Assembly (NCBI RefSeq): GCF_002386345.1
Contig: NZ_CP023507.1
Location: 1,674,001-1,738,000 of the forward strand
Direction of reading: 5' to 3'
DNA: 64,000 nucleotides
DNA from: Streptococcus oralis
GTDB lineage: Bacteria > Bacillota > Bacilli > Lactobacillales > Streptococcaceae
Part shown: piece by piece, positions 19,715 through 27,880 of the stretch
Layout of the letters: every line of letters starts with the position of its first letter
How positions within the stretch are numbered: position 1 is the stretch's first letter
Program-made: the position numbers and the translations under genes
The notes under the pieces: model-generated
What the model was told of the DNA's origin: nothing
Databases searched by the model: none
What the model saw: the letters and a program-made list of their open reading frames with translations, nothing else

Positions 19715-21247
19715 TCAAAGCATGGGTGCAAACAACTGGACAATTTCCTTGACCAGGCTTTGATACCAGCTGGTTTTGATGGTGTGGGGATAAATTTCTT
19801 GAGAAACTTTAAAAATCTCTTCGAAGTCCCTTTCAATAGCGATGATAGACTGCGTTCTATAAAGTAAGACGGCATTTTCATAGTGGTGAAGCAAGCTCCG
19901 ATAGTCAAAATTGATGGTTCCCACGGTGGCCACTTCTCCATCGACAAGCATTTGCTTGCTATGAAGGAATCCCGGACTGTATTCATAAATACGAACTCCT
20001 GCAGATAACAAGTCTGGATAAGCCCCTCGAGTAACTAGCTGAATAACCTTCTTATCTGGGATACACGGTGTCACAATTCGCACATCTACCCCTCTCAGAG
20101 CTGTATTTTTGATACTTTCAGTTAGATCGTAGTCAGCAATTAGATAGGGAGTCGTGATATAGACGTAATCTGTAGCTTGATTGATAAGATTTTGGTAGAC
20201 CGTTTTTCCAACTTGAGCTCTGTAGATGGGTTTTGGTCCACTACTATAGGGAATACAGAGCCCCATCCCATCTTTTGGCTGATTTTCAAGATGGTATTGG
20301 TCAAAATCACTAATCTCTCCACGGTTGATATACCAGGCAGATAAAAAGAGTCTGGTAAAAGCCTTAACTGCCGGTCCATCCAGACGAATACCGCTATCCT
20401 TCCAATAACCAAAGCGTTCGATATGGTTGATATACTCATCAGCCAGATTGATACCACCTGTATAGGCAATTTGACCATCGATAATCATGATTTTACGGTG
20501 ATCACGGTTGTTATAAGCAACGGTCAAACGTGGAATCACCTTATTAAATTTGTGGGCTTCAATCCCTCGACCACGAAGCTGGATGGTGTAATCTCCAGGC
20601 AAGGTTGCCATACAACCAATATCATCATAGAGAAGCTTCACCTCTACTCCTTGAGCTGCCTTTTCTTCCAAAATCTCCAAAATACTATTCCACATCAAAC
20701 CTTCTTCGATGATATAGTATTCGAGAAAGATAAACTTCTCAGCTTTCTTGAGATCCTCTAGCATCTGATGCCACATACTTTCCCCAGATGCAAAAAATTG
20801 TGTATCCGTTCGATCATAGACATCGGCATTCGTATCCATGCTAAGGAGTGATTTGATAACTCCGTAAGCTGATTTGTCTTGTTCCTTTAACTCCAAACGG
20901 AGAGCTCTGCTATTGTCCTCTCGATCAACCATTGATTGGAGCTGCTTTAGCTGCTTCATTTCTTTTTTAGATAAACGACGCTCTCCAAACATGATATAGA
21001 GCAATGGGCCAAACACTGGCACAAAGGCTACTAACAGCCATGTTACCTTACTCTCAGGATTCATAGACCGATTGACAATCGATACAATGGTCGCTAAACT
21101 CACTAAAATGACCAGGATAATCCAGACAATTGGAGCCATTTGCCCTAGATAGAGAAATAAACCAAAGACGATAAACAACTCTGCCAACATGATGGTAATA
21201 CTAAAACCATATTTGGACATGAGTAGCTGCATTTTTCTAGCTGTCAT
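19715..21247 (-). CDS. cls: Cardiolipin synthase
   Basis: A 510-residue membrane-bound phospholipase D-type enzyme that condenses two phosphatidylglycerols. There are two hydrophobic helices near the N-terminus, then a PLDNF domain, then two HxKxxxxD motifs (HRKIMIIDG around residue 245 and HSKQMLVDG around 425). The length matches the Cls family. It has its own promoter (21306-21335) and terminator. It lies next to the lipid-like biosynthetic cluster but is not transcriptionally joined to it. Confidence 0.95.
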   Translation of the reverse strand: MTARKMQLLMSKYGFSITIMLAELFIVFGLFLYLGQMAPIVWIILVILVSLATIVSIVNRSMNPESKVTWLLVAFVPVFGPLLYIMFGERRLSKKEMKQLKQLQSMVDREDNSRALRLELKEQDKSAYGVIKSLLSMDTNADVYDRTDTQFFASGESMWHQMLEDLKKAEKFIFLEYYIIEEGLMWNSILEILEEKAAQGVEVKLLYDDIGCMATLPGDYTIQLRGRGIEAHKFNKVIPRLTVAYNNRDHRKIMIIDGQIAYTGGINLADEYINHIERFGYWKDSGIRLDGPAVKAFTRLFLSAWYINRGEISDFDQYHLENQPKDGMGLCIPYSSGPKPIYRAQVGKTVYQNLINQATDYVYITTPYLIADYDLTESIKNTALRGVDVRIVTPCIPDKKVIQLVTRGAYPDLLSAGVRIYEYSPGFLHSKQMLVDGEVATVGTINFDYRSLLHHYENAVLLYRTQSIIAIERDFEEIFKVSQEIYPHTIKTSWYQSLVKEIVQLFAPML

Positions 21248-21335: not shown

Positions 21336-21382
21336 CCGTTTACCTTTGCTCAAGTTCCAGTCGTTCCGTGTTTAGATGATTA

Positions 21383-22327
21383 TTACAATTTCAGAGCCAA
21401 CATATTGACCGTCATACCAGCTGCAGTCCCCATAAGGTAGACGACATCTCCCTCCTTGATAAGTCCATGCTCCAAAGAATAAGCCAGGCCAAACGGTACA
21501 GAGACTGACACCATATTTCCATAGTCAGTGACGAGATTGAGGTACTGATCCTCAGCCACACCTAGTTTTTCCATGACCAAAGGAAGAGCACGACTTGCTT
21601 GGTGAGGAATGATATAGTCCACGTCTGCCAAGGCTAGCTGTGTTTTTTCTTGAAACTCTTCAAACATGACTGGGATTTTACGAGCAGACAAGAGGAGGAT
21701 TTTCTTCCCCTTCATGTCAAACATATAGTTGGTCTTCGTCGCTTCAGAGTACTCTTTTGGTTGAAAAGAAGTCAGACCTCCACGAATCTCCGTATCGTGA
21801 GCCCCTTCTGACCAAGTACGTTGGAGACTAGCAATGACCCCTTTTTCCTGATGACTTTTTTGGAAAATAAAGGCTGCTGCCCCATCACTAAAGAGTTCAA
21901 AACTTTCTTTTTGCTTGGGATTGAGCCCTAAACTACCAACCTCACTAGACACAAGCAAGACACGATTGTATTCGCCCGCCTCAATCAAGTGGGACATAGT
22001 CGATAGAGCAGAAATAAAGCTGGTACAGGTCGTATTGATGTCCATTGCTGGAATTGAGAGTCCTTTTGCCACGCGCTCATGAATCAAGGCAGCCGTACAA
22101 GGAATAGGCTGAACACCAACTGCACTAGCTGATACAAGGCAATTGATATCTTTAATATCCAAATTTGCATGTTCAAGTGCACGGTGGATAGCTCCTTCTG
22201 CCAAGTCGAGTTGCGTTTCTTCATTTTCAACTACACGATAACGGGTCTGGTCTTTAAATTGAACTGTATGCTTTGGAAGGCAAATGCCATAACCTGCGAT
22301 TTCTACATGTCTTTTTACTTCTGTCAT
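21383..22327 (-). CDS. KAS III / OleA-like 3-oxoacyl synthase
   Basis: A 314-residue thiolase-fold enzyme with the full KAS III catalytic triad: Cys101 (DINTTCTSF), His242 (IIPHQASRAL) and Asn271 (DYGNMVSVS). Such enzymes condense an acyl-CoA or acyl-ACP with malonyl-ACP (FabH), or two acyl-CoAs (OleA). I start at ATG 22327, behind an AAGGAAG site, rather than at 22345, which overlaps the preceding stop. It is the last gene of a five-gene operon with an OleD-like reductase, so a role outside primary fatty-acid synthesis is inferred. The acyl substrates are unknown. Confidence 0.85.
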   Translation of the reverse strand: MTEVKRHVEIAGYGICLPKHTVQFKDQTRYRVVENEETQLDLAEGAIHRALEHANLDIKDINCLVSASAVGVQPIPCTAALIHERVAKGLSIPAMDINTTCTSFISALSTMSHLIEAGEYNRVLLVSSEVGSLGLNPKQKESFELFSDGAAAFIFQKSHQEKGVIASLQRTWSEGAHDTEIRGGLTSFQPKEYSEATKTNYMFDMKGKKILLLSARKIPVMFEEFQEKTQLALADVDYIIPHQASRALPLVMEKLGVAEDQYLNLVTDYGNMVSVSVPFGLAYSLEHGLIKEGDVVYLMGTAAGMTVNMLALKL

Positions 22328-22341
22328 TGTCTTTCTTCCTT

Positions 22342-23604
22342 TCATAAACGTTGGATACGTTTGAGTTTACGGCTAATATCCCAGTGATAATCTGAAAATT
22401 GGATTTGAGGAACTATGAACTCTTTTTGCTGGGCCAAGAGTTGGAACTGTGCTAAAATTGCTGTCTCTACGTCCTCATCTCTTCGGCTTAAACAAACTTC
22501 CACTAATTTCTCGGAATGTTGCTTAACTTGGTAATCTCCTACATTCTCCACAAAGAGGATACAACGCCTGATAAAGTCTGGATAGATCGTTACCTGCCCG
22601 CCATTCTGCCCTTTAAAGTAGAAGATATCATCAGAGCGTCCTTCGACCTTGTCAATCCGTGTATAGTAGGAGCCACAGGGACAAGGCTCCGGATTTTCAA
22701 CCAAGATATCATTGAGCTGGTAGCGATAAACAGGCTGACTGCTTCGTTTAAAGTCCGTAATCACTGGATAGAAACGGCGGTCATCTAGATACTGCTTTTC
22801 CACAAAGATAATGTCTTCGTTGAGATGCAGATTGCCAGCTGAGCAAGTGCAGGCTAAGAAACCTTCAGTCGCCTGATAAACTTGATCAATGATGGATAGT
22901 GAAAAGGCTTCTGCGATTCGTCCTCTATCACTATCTTCCAAGATTTCCGCCACCGAAACGATTTTTTGAGGATGAATGGCTAACTCTCCAGCCTTAAGAC
23001 GCTTGCTCAATTCAATCAACATCGAGGCTGGCGCCACAATAATCGTTGGTTGATAGTTGTTGAGTCGCTCGATATGCTCATCTGTATGTTTGAAAATATC
23101 AAAATACTCTAGACGAATGAGCGCTGTATTGATGGTCTGATAGAGTTCATTATCAGCTCTCAGGAAAAAGGCGATGCGGTGTCCAAAAAGCTGCCCCTTG
23201 GGCAACATCTTTGCCAAGATAGCCGCAGCCCACATACTTCGCTCTTTCTCTGTTGTGATAAAGAGCCCCCGATGTCCAGACGTCCCTGAAGACAGACCGA
23301 CGGCTACTTCCCCTTTAAGTTCAGTGAAGTCACGGGTCTTCTCACTTTCAATAGCTAAGGATAAGGCTTCATCACGATCCACTCCTTGGGTGTTGAGCTC
23401 ATTGAAATGTTCCATCATAAAAGCCTTGTCCATATGGTCAAAGTTGCTAGGAACTCCATTTTTAAAGTAGGGCGACTCTCGCTTTAAAAAGTCTATATAG
23501 TTAGTTAATTGCTTTTTCTGATAGTTTTCTACAGCTTCTCGAGATTTGAAATGATGAAGCCATCGAGTTTGGATAAAGGTTTTAAGAAAGGTTATTTTTT
23601 TCAT
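22342..23604 (-). CDS. PaaK / F390 synthetase-type adenylate-forming enzyme
   Basis: A 420-residue member of the adenylating superfamily. Visible motifs are the phosphate-binding loop SSGTSG (105-110), YQATEG (A5), YRYQLND (A7), the zinc-knuckle-like CPCG of the PaaK/coenzyme F390 branch, and GRSDDIF (A8). Lysines near the C-terminus (SRKLKRI) could supply the A10 function. It probably activates a carboxylate as the acyl-AMP. It overlaps the preceding hydrolase gene by 23 bases. The acceptor is unknown; the cluster context suggests a hydroxy- or oxo-fatty acid. Confidence 0.8.
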   Translation of the reverse strand: MKKITFLKTFIQTRWLHHFKSREAVENYQKKQLTNYIDFLKRESPYFKNGVPSNFDHMDKAFMMEHFNELNTQGVDRDEALSLAIESEKTRDFTELKGEVAVGLSSGTSGHRGLFITTEKERSMWAAAILAKMLPKGQLFGHRIAFFLRADNELYQTINTALIRLEYFDIFKHTDEHIERLNNYQPTIIVAPASMLIELSKRLKAGELAIHPQKIVSVAEILEDSDRGRIAEAFSLSIIDQVYQATEGFLACTCSAGNLHLNEDIIFVEKQYLDDRRFYPVITDFKRSSQPVYRYQLNDILVENPEPCPCGSYYTRIDKVEGRSDDIFYFKGQNGGQVTIYPDFIRRCILFVENVGDYQVKQHSEKLVEVCLSRRDEDVETAILAQFQLLAQQKEFIVPQIQFSDYHWDISRKLKRIQRL

Positions 23605-24397
23605 GTAAGATTGACTCTATCCTTTCTACAGGATCATGGCTAACAACTACCTCGATACCGTCCTTTAAGACTTCCTCCAGAAACTCTGTCCCCCTGATAT
23701 AGTCAGACTTATTATCCTGAACAAAGGAAGGAATCAGGTGCATCTGCTTGGTGTAAGGTAAGAGATCAATCCCCCAACAGAGGTCCGCTGCAATGAGGAG
23801 ATTAAGGTCTGGAAAATATAGACAGGCTTGCCCCCTAGCATGCCCGTCAACAGAGGCTACTAGGATACTGCCATCTCCAAAAAGATCACAAATTGGACGA
23901 TAGGGAAAAGTTGAAACTTGCTGGTCAGCTCTGATAATGGTTAGATTTTTCTCAAAAGAAGCAGGTAAAAACTCCTTGAAAATCAAGTCTTTCAATTTGG
24001 GTTTTTGGTAGACTTCATATACTTCTTTTGTCAAGATAAAGGTTGCATGAGGAAAGAAACTAGCTCCTCCCAGATGATCTGGATGTAGGTGTGATAGAAG
24101 AACATAGTTAATTTCTTCTGGTTTGATTCCCTTCGCTTCCAGTAAACGTGAAATTTGGTCCTTCTCCGTCATTTGAACGGGCGTTCCTAGCCGATAGAAA
24201 CCATAGCGAAGCCGGGTCTTAATATCGTAATGATAGCCTGTGTCATAGAGGAGATAGCCCTTGTCCCTGTGTTTGATAAGAAAAACACCTGCTGGAAAGG
24301 TCATCTTTTGATTCTTGACTCCCTTAAATAGCAAACCTGTGTAGCTGGTACAGTAGCCTGCTGGGAAATAATCAATGCTTTCGATAATCTTGGACAT
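23582..24397 (-). CDS. Metallo-beta-lactamase-fold hydrolase, lactonase-like
   Basis: A 271-residue enzyme with the HxHxDH motif HLHPDH (103-108), then DGHARGQ, AADLCWG and SHDP supplying the remaining zinc ligands, so both metal sites look complete. The overall pattern (FPAGVFLIKH..GYLLYDTGY near the N-terminus) is like acyl-homoserine-lactonase relatives. The start is ATG 24397; the upstream TTG at 24406 has poor spacing. It overlaps both neighbouring genes, so translation is coupled. Substrate unknown; an acyl lactone or thioester intermediate of the pathway is an inference. Confidence 0.8.
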   Translation of the reverse strand: MSKIIESIDYFPAGYCTSYTGLLFKGVKNQKMTFPAGVFLIKHRDKGYLLYDTGYHYDIKTRLRYGFYRLGTPVQMTEKDQISRLLEAKGIKPEEINYVLLSHLHPDHLGGASFFPHATFILTKEVYEVYQKPKLKDLIFKEFLPASFEKNLTIIRADQQVSTFPYRPICDLFGDGSILVASVDGHARGQACLYFPDLNLLIAADLCWGIDLLPYTKQMHLIPSFVQDNKSDYIRGTEFLEEVLKDGIEVVVSHDPVERIESILHEKNNLS

Positions 24398-25352
24398 ATT
24401 GTTCAATCCCTTCCGAAATACTGATTTGAGGGCGATACTCCAAGTCTCGCTCCGCCTTGCTGATGTCCAGCGTCTGACTATAACGGAGCAGATAATAGGT
24501 ATAGCGTGTCAGAGGCGGTTCACCTTTGAGTTTCAAGACCTTATACAGAAACTCTAAACTACTAGCAATAACTGAAAGAAGAGGAGCTGGCACTTTTCTG
24601 TATGTTATTGGATAACCCAACTCTCTCAAGGTTTCTTCAATCAAATCCTTAAAGGTTCTTGATTCCCCATTGGTAATATTATAAACTTCGCCACTAGCTT
24701 GAGGAGTCTCTAGTGCCAAGCGAATTGCCAGAGCGACATTTTCCACACAGGTCATATCCATAAGCTGACGACCGTCTCCTATTAAGGGAATGCCAATCTT
24801 CTGACTGAGTTTGAGAACTCGGGGCAAAATACTGGTATCCCCAATCCCAAAAAGCCCACGAGGTCGTAAAATAATACTCGGAACATCGGGATAATCCTTA
24901 AACAGCTTCTCCGAAGCCAGCTTACTACGAATGTAGTTGTTCAGATTATTTTCCTGAGGCGCAGCACTTTCTTTGATAGCTAGCTGATCTCGAGGCGCAG
25001 CATAGATGCTAGGCGAGGACACATAAACCAAACGCTGAATACCAGCCTCTCGGCAAGCATCCAGAACATACTTGGTCCCTAAGACATTTGTCTGGTAGAA
25101 ATCCTCCCAAGCACCCCAAACGGTAGAAAGAGCACCCGCATGCACAACCATGTCCATCCCCTGACAAGCCCGAGCTAAATCCTCTTGCTTGGTCAAATCT
25201 CCCTGAAAAAATGCCACAGAGGAGTTCTCTAAAGACTGACCCACCTTGCGATTGCGTCCAAAAGCGCGTACCTGATAGCCCTGCTGACTGAGCTCTTCAA
25301 CAACATACTTGCCTAGAAAGCCCGTAGCACCTGTTACCAATACTTTCTTCAT
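24372..25352 (-). CDS. Extended SDR reductase, OleD / 3-beta-HSD-like
   Basis: A 326-residue NAD(P)-dependent oxidoreductase with the Rossmann motif GATGFLG (8-14), catalytic Ser in VSSPSIY (about 112) and YIRSK (Tyr140, Lys144). Blocks such as HAGALSTVWG, RPRGLFGIGD, QLMDMTCVENVA and QTLDISKAERDL resemble the OleD and 3-beta-hydroxysteroid dehydrogenase branch as I remember it. OleD reduces a 2-alkyl-3-oxo acid made by OleA. It starts three bases after the glycosyltransferase gene and overlaps the hydrolase gene. Confidence 0.82.
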   Translation of the reverse strand: MKKVLVTGATGFLGKYVVEELSQQGYQVRAFGRNRKVGQSLENSSVAFFQGDLTKQEDLARACQGMDMVVHAGALSTVWGAWEDFYQTNVLGTKYVLDACREAGIQRLVYVSSPSIYAAPRDQLAIKESAAPQENNLNNYIRSKLASEKLFKDYPDVPSIILRPRGLFGIGDTSILPRVLKLSQKIGIPLIGDGRQLMDMTCVENVALAIRLALETPQASGEVYNITNGESRTFKDLIEETLRELGYPITYRKVPAPLLSVIASSLEFLYKVLKLKGEPPLTRYTYYLLRYSQTLDISKAERDLEYRPQISISEGIEQYVQDYRKH

Positions 25353-25355
25353 TTT

Positions 25356-26624
25356 TTACTTCTCCTTGTCCCCTAAGAGCCGATGTATTTCGCTCTTCAG
25401 AATCTCTGTTGGCTGATAGATTTGAGCTGCACGACTAAGTTTGTTCAAGTCTGCCCAGTCATCTCTAGCCAACAACTCATCAAAGGCGCGTCCAATCGCT
25501 TCCGTATCCTCTCGTTTAGCAGTCAAAGCAATCCCTGCCTCTAATCCACGAACTGCATAGTCATACTGATCATAGTCATGGGGGAGAATCAAGGCAGGCT
25601 TACCATAGATGATACACTGGTAAAAAATACCCGCACCACCATGATGAATCACATAATCCATCTGAGGAATGTACTCCTTATAGGGAAGATAGGATACCAC
25701 AGAAACATTGTCCATGAGCTCTTCACATTGGAAGTCTTGTCCGCCAAACCCCAGAGTCACAAAGAAGTGGCAATCTGGATGTGCTTCTGCCAATTGTTGT
25801 GTCTGACAGAGGAGATTGTCTTTGGCCCATGCTAGCTGAGTGCCACAGGAGACAAGGACCTTCTTATAACCTGCATAAGGAGACAAATCGAGGGGATAAT
25901 TTTCTGCCCTCTCAATCGAAGAGCCAAAAGGTCCCACCCAAAGGTAGTGCTCTGGAAAACCACTTTTCAGCTCCAACTCTTTCATCCCAATTCCCAAGAT
26001 GGAATAGGGTGAATAGATGGTTTCCTGACCTTTCTGATTGTAAAGTTTAAAATCGTAACGTTTCAATCGTTCTCTCAATAAAAAGCTTACGATTCGTTTC
26101 CCTAAACGAGTCCCTTTTCTTCCTAGCCATTGCAGACCAGATTGGAAAGATGTTTTTGGACTGCCCAATCCTCCAAAGAAACAAGGCGGTCCATCTGTCG
26201 TTTCAATGGCAAACTGTGTCGCCATCGTGGTAATCCAGGGAATATTCAACTGTTCCGCAACAAGTCCTCCAGAGAGGGTTATAAAGTCCGCAATCACAAT
26301 ATCCGGTCTATTTTCCTGCCACTCTTGCACTAATTGATCTGAAACCACATTGATCAAATCAAGACTAGCTGACAACTGTCGATAAGCAGAAAACAGGTTT
26401 AATTGACCTTCATTGTTGGCTACACGCTCAAACTCATCTACACAATTTTCTAAAATGGAAATCACTCGGAATCCCATCTCCTCTGCTACAGTTTTTCGTT
26501 GCGGTCCTGTAAATAATCGAATCTCATACAAGGGATCCTTCAACAAGGGTGCAAGTAAATTCAGTGTTGGGAAGAGATGCCCACTTAAGGGTACTACAAC
26601 CACATCAATTTTGATTTTTCTCAT
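25356..26624 (-). CDS. UDP-glycosyltransferase (MGT/GT1 family)
   Basis: A 422-residue GT-B enzyme. The N-terminal half begins VVVVPLSGHLFPTLNLL (acceptor domain) and the C-terminal half carries the sugar-nucleotide signature HHGGAGIFYQCIIYGKPALI followed by LPHDYDQYDYAVRGLEAG. Relatives glycosylate macrolides, polyketides, sterols and lipids. The start is ATG 26624; the longer frame would begin with TTG inside the terminator at 26650-26682. It is the first gene of the five-gene cluster, so a glycosylated product is inferred. Confidence 0.85.
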   Translation of the reverse strand: MRKIKIDVVVVPLSGHLFPTLNLLAPLLKDPLYEIRLFTGPQRKTVAEEMGFRVISILENCVDEFERVANNEGQLNLFSAYRQLSASLDLINVVSDQLVQEWQENRPDIVIADFITLSGGLVAEQLNIPWITTMATQFAIETTDGPPCFFGGLGSPKTSFQSGLQWLGRKGTRLGKRIVSFLLRERLKRYDFKLYNQKGQETIYSPYSILGIGMKELELKSGFPEHYLWVGPFGSSIERAENYPLDLSPYAGYKKVLVSCGTQLAWAKDNLLCQTQQLAEAHPDCHFFVTLGFGGQDFQCEELMDNVSVVSYLPYKEYIPQMDYVIHHGGAGIFYQCIIYGKPALILPHDYDQYDYAVRGLEAGIALTAKREDTEAIGRAFDELLARDDWADLNKLSRAAQIYQPTEILKSEIHRLLGDKEK

Positions 26625-26646
26625 ATGTCTAGGATAGCAAATTTTA

Positions 26647-26682
26647 AAAAAAAGAACTACCAAAATGATAGTTCTTTCCAAT
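26647..26682 (-). terminator. Terminator of the Fe-ADH gene
   Basis: On the minus strand AAAGAACTA and TAGTTCTTT pair around a TCATTTTGG loop, followed by a run of T. It lies 47 bases after the alcohol dehydrogenase stop and only about 25 bases before the glycosyltransferase ATG. Confidence 0.85.
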
Positions 26683-26728: not shown

Positions 26729-27880
26729 TTAAAAAAGTTCTTTGTAGAGAGCAATGGTTTCTTCTAAAGTTGGCATAAATGGATTGCCTGGCGCACATGC
26801 ATCAATCAAAGCATTCTTAGAAAGGTAGTCAAAGTCAAAGTCTTTTTCTTGGATACCGAGTTCAGTGAGTTTCTTCGGAATACCAACAGTTTCAGAAAGT
26901 TTCTCAATCTCAGCGATAGCATAGTCAGCACATTCTTGGTCTGTTTTCCCTTCAACATGGAGTCCCAAGGCCTTGGCCACATTGCGGAAAGCTTCTGGTA
27001 CACGCTTGGCATTTTCACGTTCTACAACTGGGAGAAGCATGGCACAGCAGACACCATGTGGCAAGTTATATACCGCACCGAGTTGGTGAGCCATAGAATG
27101 AACATAACCCAAACCAGCATTGTTAAAGCTCATACCACCGAGGAAGATGGCATTGACCATACCCTCACGCGCTTCAATATCTTGGCCATTTGCCACAGCA
27201 CGAGGAAGATACTCCTTGATGAGTTCAATCGCTCCGATAGAAAGTTTCTTGGTCACATTATAAGCACCTGGTGTTACCAAGGCTTCGACAGCGTGAGTAA
27301 GAGCATCCATACCTGTCGCTGCTGTCAATCCTTTCGGCTTTGAAAGCATGAGTTCTGGATCATTGACAGAGATGAGGGCGAGGCTGTTCTTATCAACCAT
27401 TACCATCTTGACCTTGCGCTCTTCGTCAGTAATAACATAGTTAATAGTGATTTCTGCAGAAGTTCCAGCTGTTGTATTGATTGCAACCACTGGCAAGCCT
27501 TTTTTAGCAGACTTGTGAAGACCTTCGTAGTCCTGTGGTTTTCCACCATTTGTAGCGATGATAGAGATACAGCTAGCCGCATCCTGAGGAGATCCTCCTC
27601 CAAGACTGATGATGAAGTCACATCCATGCTCTTTCAGGGCAGCCACTCCATCTGTGACATTCTTGCAAGTCGGATTTGGCTCCACATCGCTAAAAATCAC
27701 ATATTCGACCCCTTCAGCATCTAATGGTTTTAGGACCTTAGGTAAAATATCACTGCCTTCGATGAACTTATCTGTCACCAAAAGGGCCTTCTTATACCCC
27801 AATTCCTTGATATACGGACCTACTTCATTTACAACACCTTTACCGATAAGGTTAACTGCCGGAACGTAAAATGTAGCCAT
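26729..27880 (-). CDS. Iron-containing alcohol dehydrogenase
   Basis: A 383-residue group III dehydrogenase close to 1,3-propanediol, lactaldehyde or butanol dehydrogenases. Visible features are the NAD-binding SLGGGSPQDAA, NTTAGTSAEIT, the metal ligand Asp in GMDALTHA, and the family signature GLGYVHSMAHQLGAVYNLPHG with the histidine ligands. It has its own promoter, a cre-like site and a terminator, so it is a single-gene unit. The physiological aldehyde or alcohol is not evident. Confidence 0.92.
   Translation of the reverse strand: MATFYVPAVNLIGKGVVNEVGPYIKELGYKKALLVTDKFIEGSDILPKVLKPLDAEGVEYVIFSDVEPNPTCKNVTDGVAALKEHGCDFIISLGGGSPQDAASCISIIATNGGKPQDYEGLHKSAKKGLPVVAINTTAGTSAEITINYVITDEERKVKMVMVDKNSLALISVNDPELMLSKPKGLTAATGMDALTHAVEALVTPGAYNVTKKLSIGAIELIKEYLPRAVANGQDIEAREGMVNAIFLGGMSFNNAGLGYVHSMAHQLGAVYNLPHGVCCAMLLPVVERENAKRVPEAFRNVAKALGLHVEGKTDQECADYAIAEIEKLSETVGIPKKLTELGIQEKDFDFDYLSKNALIDACAPGNPFMPTLEETIALYKELF

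What the first reader, a model, noticed from the sequence alone, without database searches (positions are those of the whole stretch)
21383..26624. Compact five-gene operon resembling an Ole-type acyl condensation pathway plus a glycosyltransferase
Seen: glycosyltransferase, OleD-like SDR, lactonase-like MBL hydrolase, PaaK/F390-type adenylating enzyme and KAS III/OleA-like synthase lie head to tail with overlaps or gaps of 14 nt or less, and all visible catalytic residues are intact. Known: in olefin and beta-lactone pathways OleA condenses two acyl-CoAs, OleD reduces the product and OleC adenylates it to a beta-lactone. Inference: the set could make a glycosylated long-chain hydroxy acid, lactone or related lipid, with a PaaK-like enzyme in place of OleC and an MBL hydrolase in place of OleB. 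I know of no described streptococcal product of this kind.
Basis: partly seen in the sequence, partly recalled or inferred. Interest (0 to 1): 0.85.

Follow-up and report, generated by a model that had tools for sequence, protein, structure and literature searches.

The report
Oral streptococcal operon for unknown glycolipid
Five tightly packed genes in an oral streptococcus, four of which are found together in bacteria of several phyla, are predicted to build a fatty hydroxy acid and attach a sugar to it; no product is known yet.

Summary
In detail: five intact genes lie head to tail on the minus strand at 21383-26624 (GT1 glycosyltransferase, OleD-like SDR, metallo-hydrolase, TIGR02304 adenylating enzyme, KAS III). 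The Ole reading is only partly right. The KAS III is closer to MxnB/CorB and FabH than to OleA and has Ile where OleA and PpyS carry their catalytic Glu; the metallo-hydrolase has an invariant Trp where AHL lactonases have Tyr.

The set is not confined to streptococci. The four non-GT genes are together in 84 of 87 loci from several phyla, always in the order SDR, MBL, F390; one further locus fuses SDR and MBL. Only the neighbours vary: GT1, GT21, GT2, GT4, ATP-grasp, DUF3419, or PAP2 plus fatty-acid hydroxylase (62 of 87 loci have one). In Streptococcus, 64 of 65 genomes with the core have a GT match, in cis or in trans (in three, every listed copy has stops or is in pieces); the 65th has an ATP-grasp gene at the site. 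I infer a conserved acyl-assembly module with exchangeable head-group enzymes, here making a glycosylated hydroxy-acyl lipid. No substrate or product was tested; nine paper searches found no study of the set.

The parts
25356..26624 (-). GT1 (UGT/MGT-type) glycosyltransferase, 422 aa
   Evidence: EryCIII-like_C and Glyco_tran_28_C above Pfam cut-offs; TIGR01426 64.6 bits, below its cut-off; His16 and Asp113 in 18 of 18 relatives
24372..25352 (-). Extended SDR, OleD/3-beta-HSD-like, 326 aa
   Evidence: Epimerase and 3Beta_HSD; OleD model best, 235 of 580 bits; S112, Y140, K144 in 23 of 23
23582..24406 (-). Metallo-beta-lactamase-fold hydrolase, 274 aa from TTG (ATG at 24397)
   Evidence: Lactamase_B; model pLDDT 95.3, closest fold AHL lactonase AiiA; metal ligands 23 of 23, Trp206 in place of the lactonase Tyr
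22342..23604 (-). PaaK-type adenylating enzyme, TIGR02304 F390 synthetase-related, 420 aa
   Evidence: TIGR02304 551.5 bits, cut-off 251.9; no Pfam hit at 0.01; profile aligns to PaaK 4r1l
21383..22345 (-). KAS III-type ketosynthase, 320 aa
   Evidence: ACP_syn_III and ACP_syn_III_C; model pLDDT 92.6; nearest structure MxnB; C-H-N 26 of 26, no OleA-type Glu
21348..26648 (.). Present/absent block of 5.3 kb between adh and cls
   Evidence: In L209 (G007), L210 (G032) and L211 (G034) the DNA that matches the window stops at 21347 and resumes at 26649, with 103, 102 and 31 bp between; in L210 most of adh is missing as well

Best explanation
These five tightly packed genes, whose SDR, metallo-hydrolase, adenylating enzyme and KAS III are conserved together across phyla, likely form one pathway that makes a hydroxy-acyl lipid and is predicted to glycosylate it. 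Inferred steps: (1) the KAS III (Cys-His-Asn intact, no OleA-type Glu) would take an acyl chain, probably from ACP, and extend it with malonyl-ACP, or join it to a beta-keto partner as MxnB and CorB do; (2) the OleD-like SDR would reduce the keto group to a hydroxyl; (3) the metallo-hydrolase would release the hydroxy acid from its thioester; (4) the PaaK-type enzyme would adenylate the carboxyl and pass it to CoA or to an acceptor; (5) the GT1 would put a sugar on the hydroxyl. In other bacteria other head-group enzymes stand in the place of the GT, so the four-enzyme core would be a reusable acyl-assembly module. Shown here: gene content, order, intactness, co-inheritance and partner exchange. 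Inferred: every substrate, the order of steps, and the product.
For: Core of four in 84 of 87 loci, two arrangements only; SDR and MBL fused in one 612-aa ORF in L113; distance matrices of the four proteins correlate at r 0.91-0.97 over 82 loci, GT with core 0.935-0.968 over 42. In 247 Streptococcus genomes GT match and core co-occur: 64 both, 1 core only, 4 GT only, 178 neither. The core-only genome G033 has an ATP-grasp gene before the core. Partner exchange; several partners are of lipid-acting families (GT21, PAP2, fatty-acid hydroxylase, desaturase). Catalytic residues intact. KAS lacks the OleA Glu. Purifying selection.
Against: No substrate, product or transcript was tested. 25 of 87 loci show no head-group gene that my profiles recognise. 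The nearest solved relatives of the MBL are lactonases, which would fit a lactone as well as a thioester. Two genomes (G157, G214) have the GT cassette without the core. In G099, G209 and G225 every GT copy listed has stops or is in pieces. The KAS still falls in a broad FabH-like range and could have another role. No fitting lipid was seen in the passages of streptococcal lipidomics papers that I read. Correlated distances and co-occurrence partly reflect shared ancestry.
Confidence: 0.45

Rival explanations
1. A true Ole-type route: the KAS joins two acyl-CoAs without decarboxylation, the SDR makes a 2-alkyl-3-hydroxy acid, and the adenylating enzyme closes a beta-lactone or passes the acid on.
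For: SDR is nearest the OleD model; a KAS III, an SDR and an adenylating enzyme are also the parts of OleA, OleD and OleC.
Against: Ile or Leu in place of the OleA/PpyS Glu in 26 of 26; OleA model and structures rank behind FabH and MxnB; the OleD cut-off is missed by 345 bits; the adenylating enzyme is TIGR02304/PaaK-like.
Confidence: 0.1
2. An MxnB/CorB-like joining enzyme: the KAS fuses two carrier-bound chains, one of them beta-keto, to a pyrone-like or branched signal molecule that is reduced, opened by the MBL and glycosylated.
For: MxnB and CorB are the best sequence and structure matches; like them it lacks the Glu.
Confidence: 0.18
3. The set is catabolic or protective: it imports or detoxifies an exogenous lactone or acyl compound (MBL as quorum-quenching lactonase, F390 as acyl-CoA ligase).
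For: MBL is nearest AHL lactonases.
Against: A KAS III is in the core in 86 of 87 loci or more, depending on contig ends; Trp in place of the lactonase Tyr in 23 of 23; no transporter is part of the conserved set.
Confidence: 0.07
4. The four-gene core is a pathway of its own and the GT is an unrelated gene that happens to lie beside it.
For: In sanguinis-type genomes the GT is not at the site; two genomes have the GT without the core.
Against: 64 of 65 co-occurrence against 4 of 182; where the cis GT is missing or broken and no ATP-grasp is there, a GT match lies in trans in 12 of 12 opened loci, one of them with an internal stop.
Confidence: 0.1

Closest known systems
OleABCD olefin / beta-lactone pathway
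   Same: KAS III-superfamily enzyme, OleD-like SDR and an ATP-dependent adenylating enzyme in one gene set
   Different: No OleA Glu, no OleB; MBL hydrolase instead; TIGR02304/PaaK-type instead of OleC; GT or other head-group partner
MxnB / CorB ketosynthases (myxopyronin, corallopyronin)
   Same: Closest solved structures and sequences of the KAS; both lack the OleA/PpyS Glu
   Different: About 25-27 % identity; no polyketide synthase in this block; reaction untested
TIGR02304 F390 synthetase-related proteins
   Same: The adenylating enzyme is a clear member
   Different: The family had no described function in the papers found here; the four-gene association is the new part
Rhamnolipid-type glycosylation of 3-hydroxy fatty acids (RhlA/RhlB, recalled)
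   Same: A GT1-type enzyme acting on a beta-hydroxy fatty acid is the model proposed here
   Different: No RhlA in the block; hydroxy acid would come from a dedicated KAS/SDR/MBL set; sugar unknown
Hopanoid / ceramide GT21 glycosyltransferases (HpnI family)
   Same: The long form in Enterococcus, Fusobacterium and some streptococci adds a GT21 gene
   Different: Absent from the window's genome; HpnI score 56 of 310 bits

Membership tests
OleA / PpyS head-to-head ketosynthases | Catalytic Glu (OleA E117, PpyS E105) from the second subunit | tested here: not met
   Ile 24, Leu 2 of 26 at the aligned position; position taken from PMC4578411 passages through MxnB V94; which MxnB Val is V94 is my reading of the alignment
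OleA / PpyS head-to-head ketosynthases | Cys-His-Asn triad | tested here: met
   26 of 26; shared with FabH and MxnB, so not diagnostic
OleA / PpyS head-to-head ketosynthases | Curated cut-off of PRK09258 (285 bits; OleA family by recall) | tested here: not met
   91.1 bits
OleA / PpyS head-to-head ketosynthases | Joins two acyl-CoAs without decarboxylation | not testable with these tools
   needs enzyme assay
FabH (housekeeping KAS III) | TIGR00747 cut-off 292.1 bits | tested here: not met
   158.1 bits; the genome has one other protein of the ACP_syn_III_C family, which I take for its FabH
FabH (housekeeping KAS III) | Segment with the CoA-stacking Trp (role recalled) | tested here: not met
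   17-residue gap in the window KAS and 20 of 25 relatives; present in the five Bacilli rows
MxnB / CorB | Lack of the Glu, and closest structure | tested here: met
   MxnB leads by 1.6 Z
MxnB / CorB | Joins two beta-keto thioesters to a pyrone | not testable with these tools
   needs enzyme assay
OleD | NF042422 cut-off 580 bits | tested here: not met
   235.1 bits, still the best NCBIfam model
OleD | SDR Ser-Tyr-Lys | tested here: met
   23 of 23
OleC | OleC-type beta-lactone synthetase sequence | tested here: inconclusive
   best model TIGR02304 and no OleC-named model among hits; whether the library holds an OleC model was not checked
OleB | Alpha/beta-hydrolase gene in the set | tested here: not met
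   no such gene among the five
TIGR02304 | Curated cut-off 251.9 bits | tested here: met
   551.5 bits
AHL lactonase (AiiA/GcL type) | Dinuclear metal ligands HxHxDH, H, D, H | tested here: met
   23 of 23
AHL lactonase (AiiA/GcL type) | Tyr three residues after the bridging Asp (role recalled) | tested here: not met
   Trp in 23 of 23, opposite Tyr of GcL
MGT (TIGR01426) GT1 | Curated cut-off 260 bits | tested here: not met
   64.6 bits; general UGT-type fold by sequence

The most novel reading that the evidence does not exclude
An undescribed, phylum-crossing class of lipid pathway: one four-enzyme acyl-assembly module (KAS III, SDR, metallo-hydrolase, TIGR02304 ligase) that bacteria fit with exchangeable head-group enzymes (GT1, GT21, GT2 or GT4, ATP-grasp with a GNAT-like protein, BtaA-like DUF3419, PAP2 with hydroxylase and desaturase), giving oral streptococci, fusobacteria, enterococci, bacilli and about one in eight complete E. 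coli genomes a family of membrane or secreted lipids not yet recognised.
Probability: 0.4. Interest if true: 0.85.

Novelty: new variant of a known kind. Interest (0 to 1): 0.63.

Why it matters
If true, a small, widespread gene set in common human oral and gut bacteria makes lipids that have not been assigned. At the adh-cls site it is a clean present/absent block, so carriers and near relatives without it can be compared directly. A seven-gene E. coli version matches 672 of 5426 complete genomes, 671 of them over at least 80 % of its length. A fixed acyl core with swapped head groups would let products be predicted across phyla from the neighbouring gene.

Tried and rejected
OleA-type reading: set aside as the main model because of the missing Glu, the profile ranking and the structure ranking. 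OleA is not among the 50 rows printed by Foldseek and first appears at rank 47 of the VIA table; I do not count that absence as a test.

Housekeeping FabH duplicate: rejected; the window KAS misses the fabH cut-off, and the genome has another protein of the family.

Quorum-quenching or catabolic set: judged unlikely because of the KAS in the core and the Trp.

OleA references for a tree: none of 398 Bacillota genomes passes the PRK09258 cut-off, and other phyla could not be reached by that tool, so residue, profile and structure tests stand in for the phylogeny.

Loss of both FabH adenine-binding residues: I wrote this in my notebook and drop it: the Trp segment is missing, but the Arg column is K or R in 22 of 26.

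Confinement to streptococci: rejected. GT21 cassette in the window's genome: searched, not found. Promoters and terminators: no excess over shuffles, not used. Four papers that name F390 synthetases or the mitis group were looked at in passages and did not help.
Full report
What is there. The minus strand of 21383-26624 holds five complete genes in the order GT, SDR, MBL, F390-type, KAS, overlapping or at most 14 nt apart. The neighbours are an iron-type alcohol dehydrogenase gene, adh (26729-27880), upstream and a cardiolipin-synthase-like gene, cls (19715-21247), downstream; both names are mine from the sequence. The window lies in a single-contig 2.05-Mb genome; the nearest named protein and contigs are S. 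oralis.

Families. The F390 gene is a clear TIGR02304 member (551.5 bits, cut-off 251.9) with no Pfam hit at E 0.01; its profile aligns to PaaK over the adenylation motifs. The SDR is best matched by the OleD model, at 235 bits against a cut-off of 580. The KAS is best matched by PRK07204 (278.8, cut-off 402), then FabH models (168.5 and 158.1), then others, with PRK09258 at 91. The MBL and the GT are general members of their superfamilies.

Active sites. Counted on the alignments: KAS Cys-His-Asn 26 of 26; MBL H-H-D-H-H-D-H 23 of 23; SDR S-Y-K 23 of 23; GT His16 and Asp113 18 of 18. I chose the relatives by hand from the loci (two GT rows come from other loci). KAS numbers in A3 start at residue 2; MBL numbers in A4 at residue 3 of the ATG-started protein.

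The MBL. The model (pLDDT 95.3) is nearest to AHL lactonases (AiiA, TM 0.72, 21 % identity). Opposite the Tyr of lactonase GcL the family has Trp in 23 of 23. I infer a changed substrate, most simply an acyl thioester; a lactone is not excluded.

The module crosses phyla. Eight more came from the plasmid collection (8 of 78 records opened). Of these 87 loci 84 have all four core genes on one strand within 6.5 kb: SDR-MBL-F390-KAS in 68 (one with a second KAS piece), KAS-SDR-MBL-F390 in 16. The three others are two contigs of 3.8 kb (L102, L117) and L113, where SDR and MBL are one ORF of 612 aa without a stop. The named sources are Streptococcus (33 of the 79), other Firmicutes, Fusobacterium, Microbacterium and Jonesia, alpha-, beta- and gamma-Proteobacteria, and single metagenome-derived Saccharibacteria and Campylobacteraceae contigs whose binning I did not check. 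Pairwise distances of the four proteins correlate at r 0.91-0.97 over the 82 loci with all four sequences above 180 aa, against at most 0.24 in 500 permutations; this shows co-inheritance, not contact. In a sample of the phylum 9 of 398 genomes pass the TIGR02304 cut-off, so the gene is sporadic.

Exchangeable partners. 62 of 87 loci have a recognised head-group gene beside the core: GT1 45, ATP-grasp 9, GT21 6, PAP2 plus fatty-acid hydroxylase 2, GT2 1, GT4 1, DUF3419 1 (some have two). The other 25 have none that my profiles see; two of these hold GT fragments and several are cut by contig ends. Among the 54 loci not named Streptococcus it is 36. The names rest on Pfam scans of representatives. 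The ATP-grasp loci are all Bacilli; six of nine also have a protein that one record calls GNAT.

Streptococcus as a natural experiment. 65 of 247 genomes have the F390 gene. A GT match at E 1e-10 is in 64 of these 65 and in 4 of the other 182 (Fisher 3.8e-53, not corrected for relatedness). In G099, G209 and G225 every copy listed has internal stops or is in pieces. The four without the core are two fragments (G150, G153) and two full genes (G157, G214). I fetched 41 of the 65 loci: all 41 have the core; 28 have a GT match over more than 90 % of its length beside it (in L157 two ORFs split by a stop), 3 a fragment, 9 none, and 1 (L149, G033) an ATP-grasp gene instead. All 12 without a full cis GT and without ATP-grasp have a near full-length match elsewhere in the genome, in G209 with a stop inside. 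Of seven trans copies opened, six (L200-L203, and L205 and L206 from genomes without the core) lie in a cassette short SDR, GT21, a 218-aa protein, GT; L204 does not. The same cassette stands directly before the core in Enterococcus L081 and L084, without GT1 in Fusobacterium L013 and L085, and around it in Paenibacillus L129. The GT21 gene is in 23 of 247 genomes, 21 of them with the core, and not in the window's genome. So the window holds the short form.

Sites, gain and loss. In the 41 loci the core lies before cls (18), before ylxM (10), after rpsD (8) or elsewhere (5). In G007, G032 and G034, whose CLS proteins are 97-98 % identical, 103, 102 and 31 bp stand where the window has 5.3 kb; in G032 most of adh is gone too. 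G150 keeps a GT remnant of about 115 codons between adh and cls, so at least one lineage lost the block. 43 of 45 computable dN/dS values against 11 chosen named loci are 0.03-0.12.

Mechanism. From general knowledge of the families, KAS III enzymes without the OleA base use malonyl-ACP or a beta-keto partner; SDRs of this type reduce 3-keto groups; MBL-fold enzymes hydrolyse thioesters or lactones; PaaK-type enzymes adenylate carboxylates; GT1 enzymes glycosylate hydroxyls. Together they give a glycosylated hydroxy-acyl product. Several partners elsewhere belong to lipid-acting families (GT21, PAP2, fatty-acid hydroxylase, desaturase; DUF3419 resembles the betaine-lipid enzyme BtaA by recall), which is why I favour a lipid. 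None of these steps was tested, and the block has no ACP gene of its own.

Literature. Nine searches of the held library listed no study of this gene set; most subscription papers are not held. In passages of three streptococcal or oral lipidomics papers (PMC5404519, PMC11052126, PMC8544892) I saw no product that fits; I read neither the whole texts nor their supplements. PMC7064751 was seen in passages for OleA.

Noticed in passing
L017:5164-12081 (E. coli KE48 record) and H31-H42: A seven-gene E. coli version (KAS, SDR, MBL, F390, PAP2 phosphatase, sterol-desaturase family, acyl-CoA desaturase) next to a nar operon; 672 of 5426 complete E. coli genomes match, nearly all on chromosomes.
   Followed up: partly
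L113:6161-7999: SDR and MBL fused in one 612-aa ORF in a Lachnospiraceae MAG.
   Followed up: yes
L149:4576-7267 (G033): The one Streptococcus core without a GT has an ATP-grasp gene and a 533-aa protein without Pfam or NCBIfam hits before the core.
   Followed up: partly
L200, L201, L202, L203, L205, L206: Separate cassette short SDR, GT21, 218-aa protein, GT1 in sanguinis- and parasanguinis/australis-type genomes; the 218-aa protein has no Pfam hit but its sequence looks alpha/beta-hydrolase-like to me.
   Followed up: partly
L207:7635-7979 (G150): GT remnant between adh and cls where the rest of the block is missing.
   Followed up: yes
L020:8211-10479 (Rhizobium plasmid pMK-2): DUF3419 gene and a further protein follow the core on a conjugative plasmid.
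   Followed up: no
L089:5050-10204: Core plus a GT4 gene on a contig binned as Saccharibacteria, a group thought to make no fatty acids (recalled); binning not checked.
   Followed up: no
window 26624-26680, minus strand: An inverted repeat with T run (end of adh, also in the empty site L209) lies only about 22 nt before the GT ATG; a TGCTATCCT string and no clear ribosome site precede it, so a leaderless start is conceivable.
   Followed up: no
L013 (NZ_CP084075.1): A 2.1-Mb Fusobacterium vincentii record filed as a plasmid; its size suggests a chromosome.
   Followed up: no
PMC9823363, table passage: A gene called coenzyme F390 synthetase (IYO_RS29540) is in a transposon-mutant table of Pseudomonas syringae pv. 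actinidiae; I did not check that it is TIGR02304.
   Followed up: no
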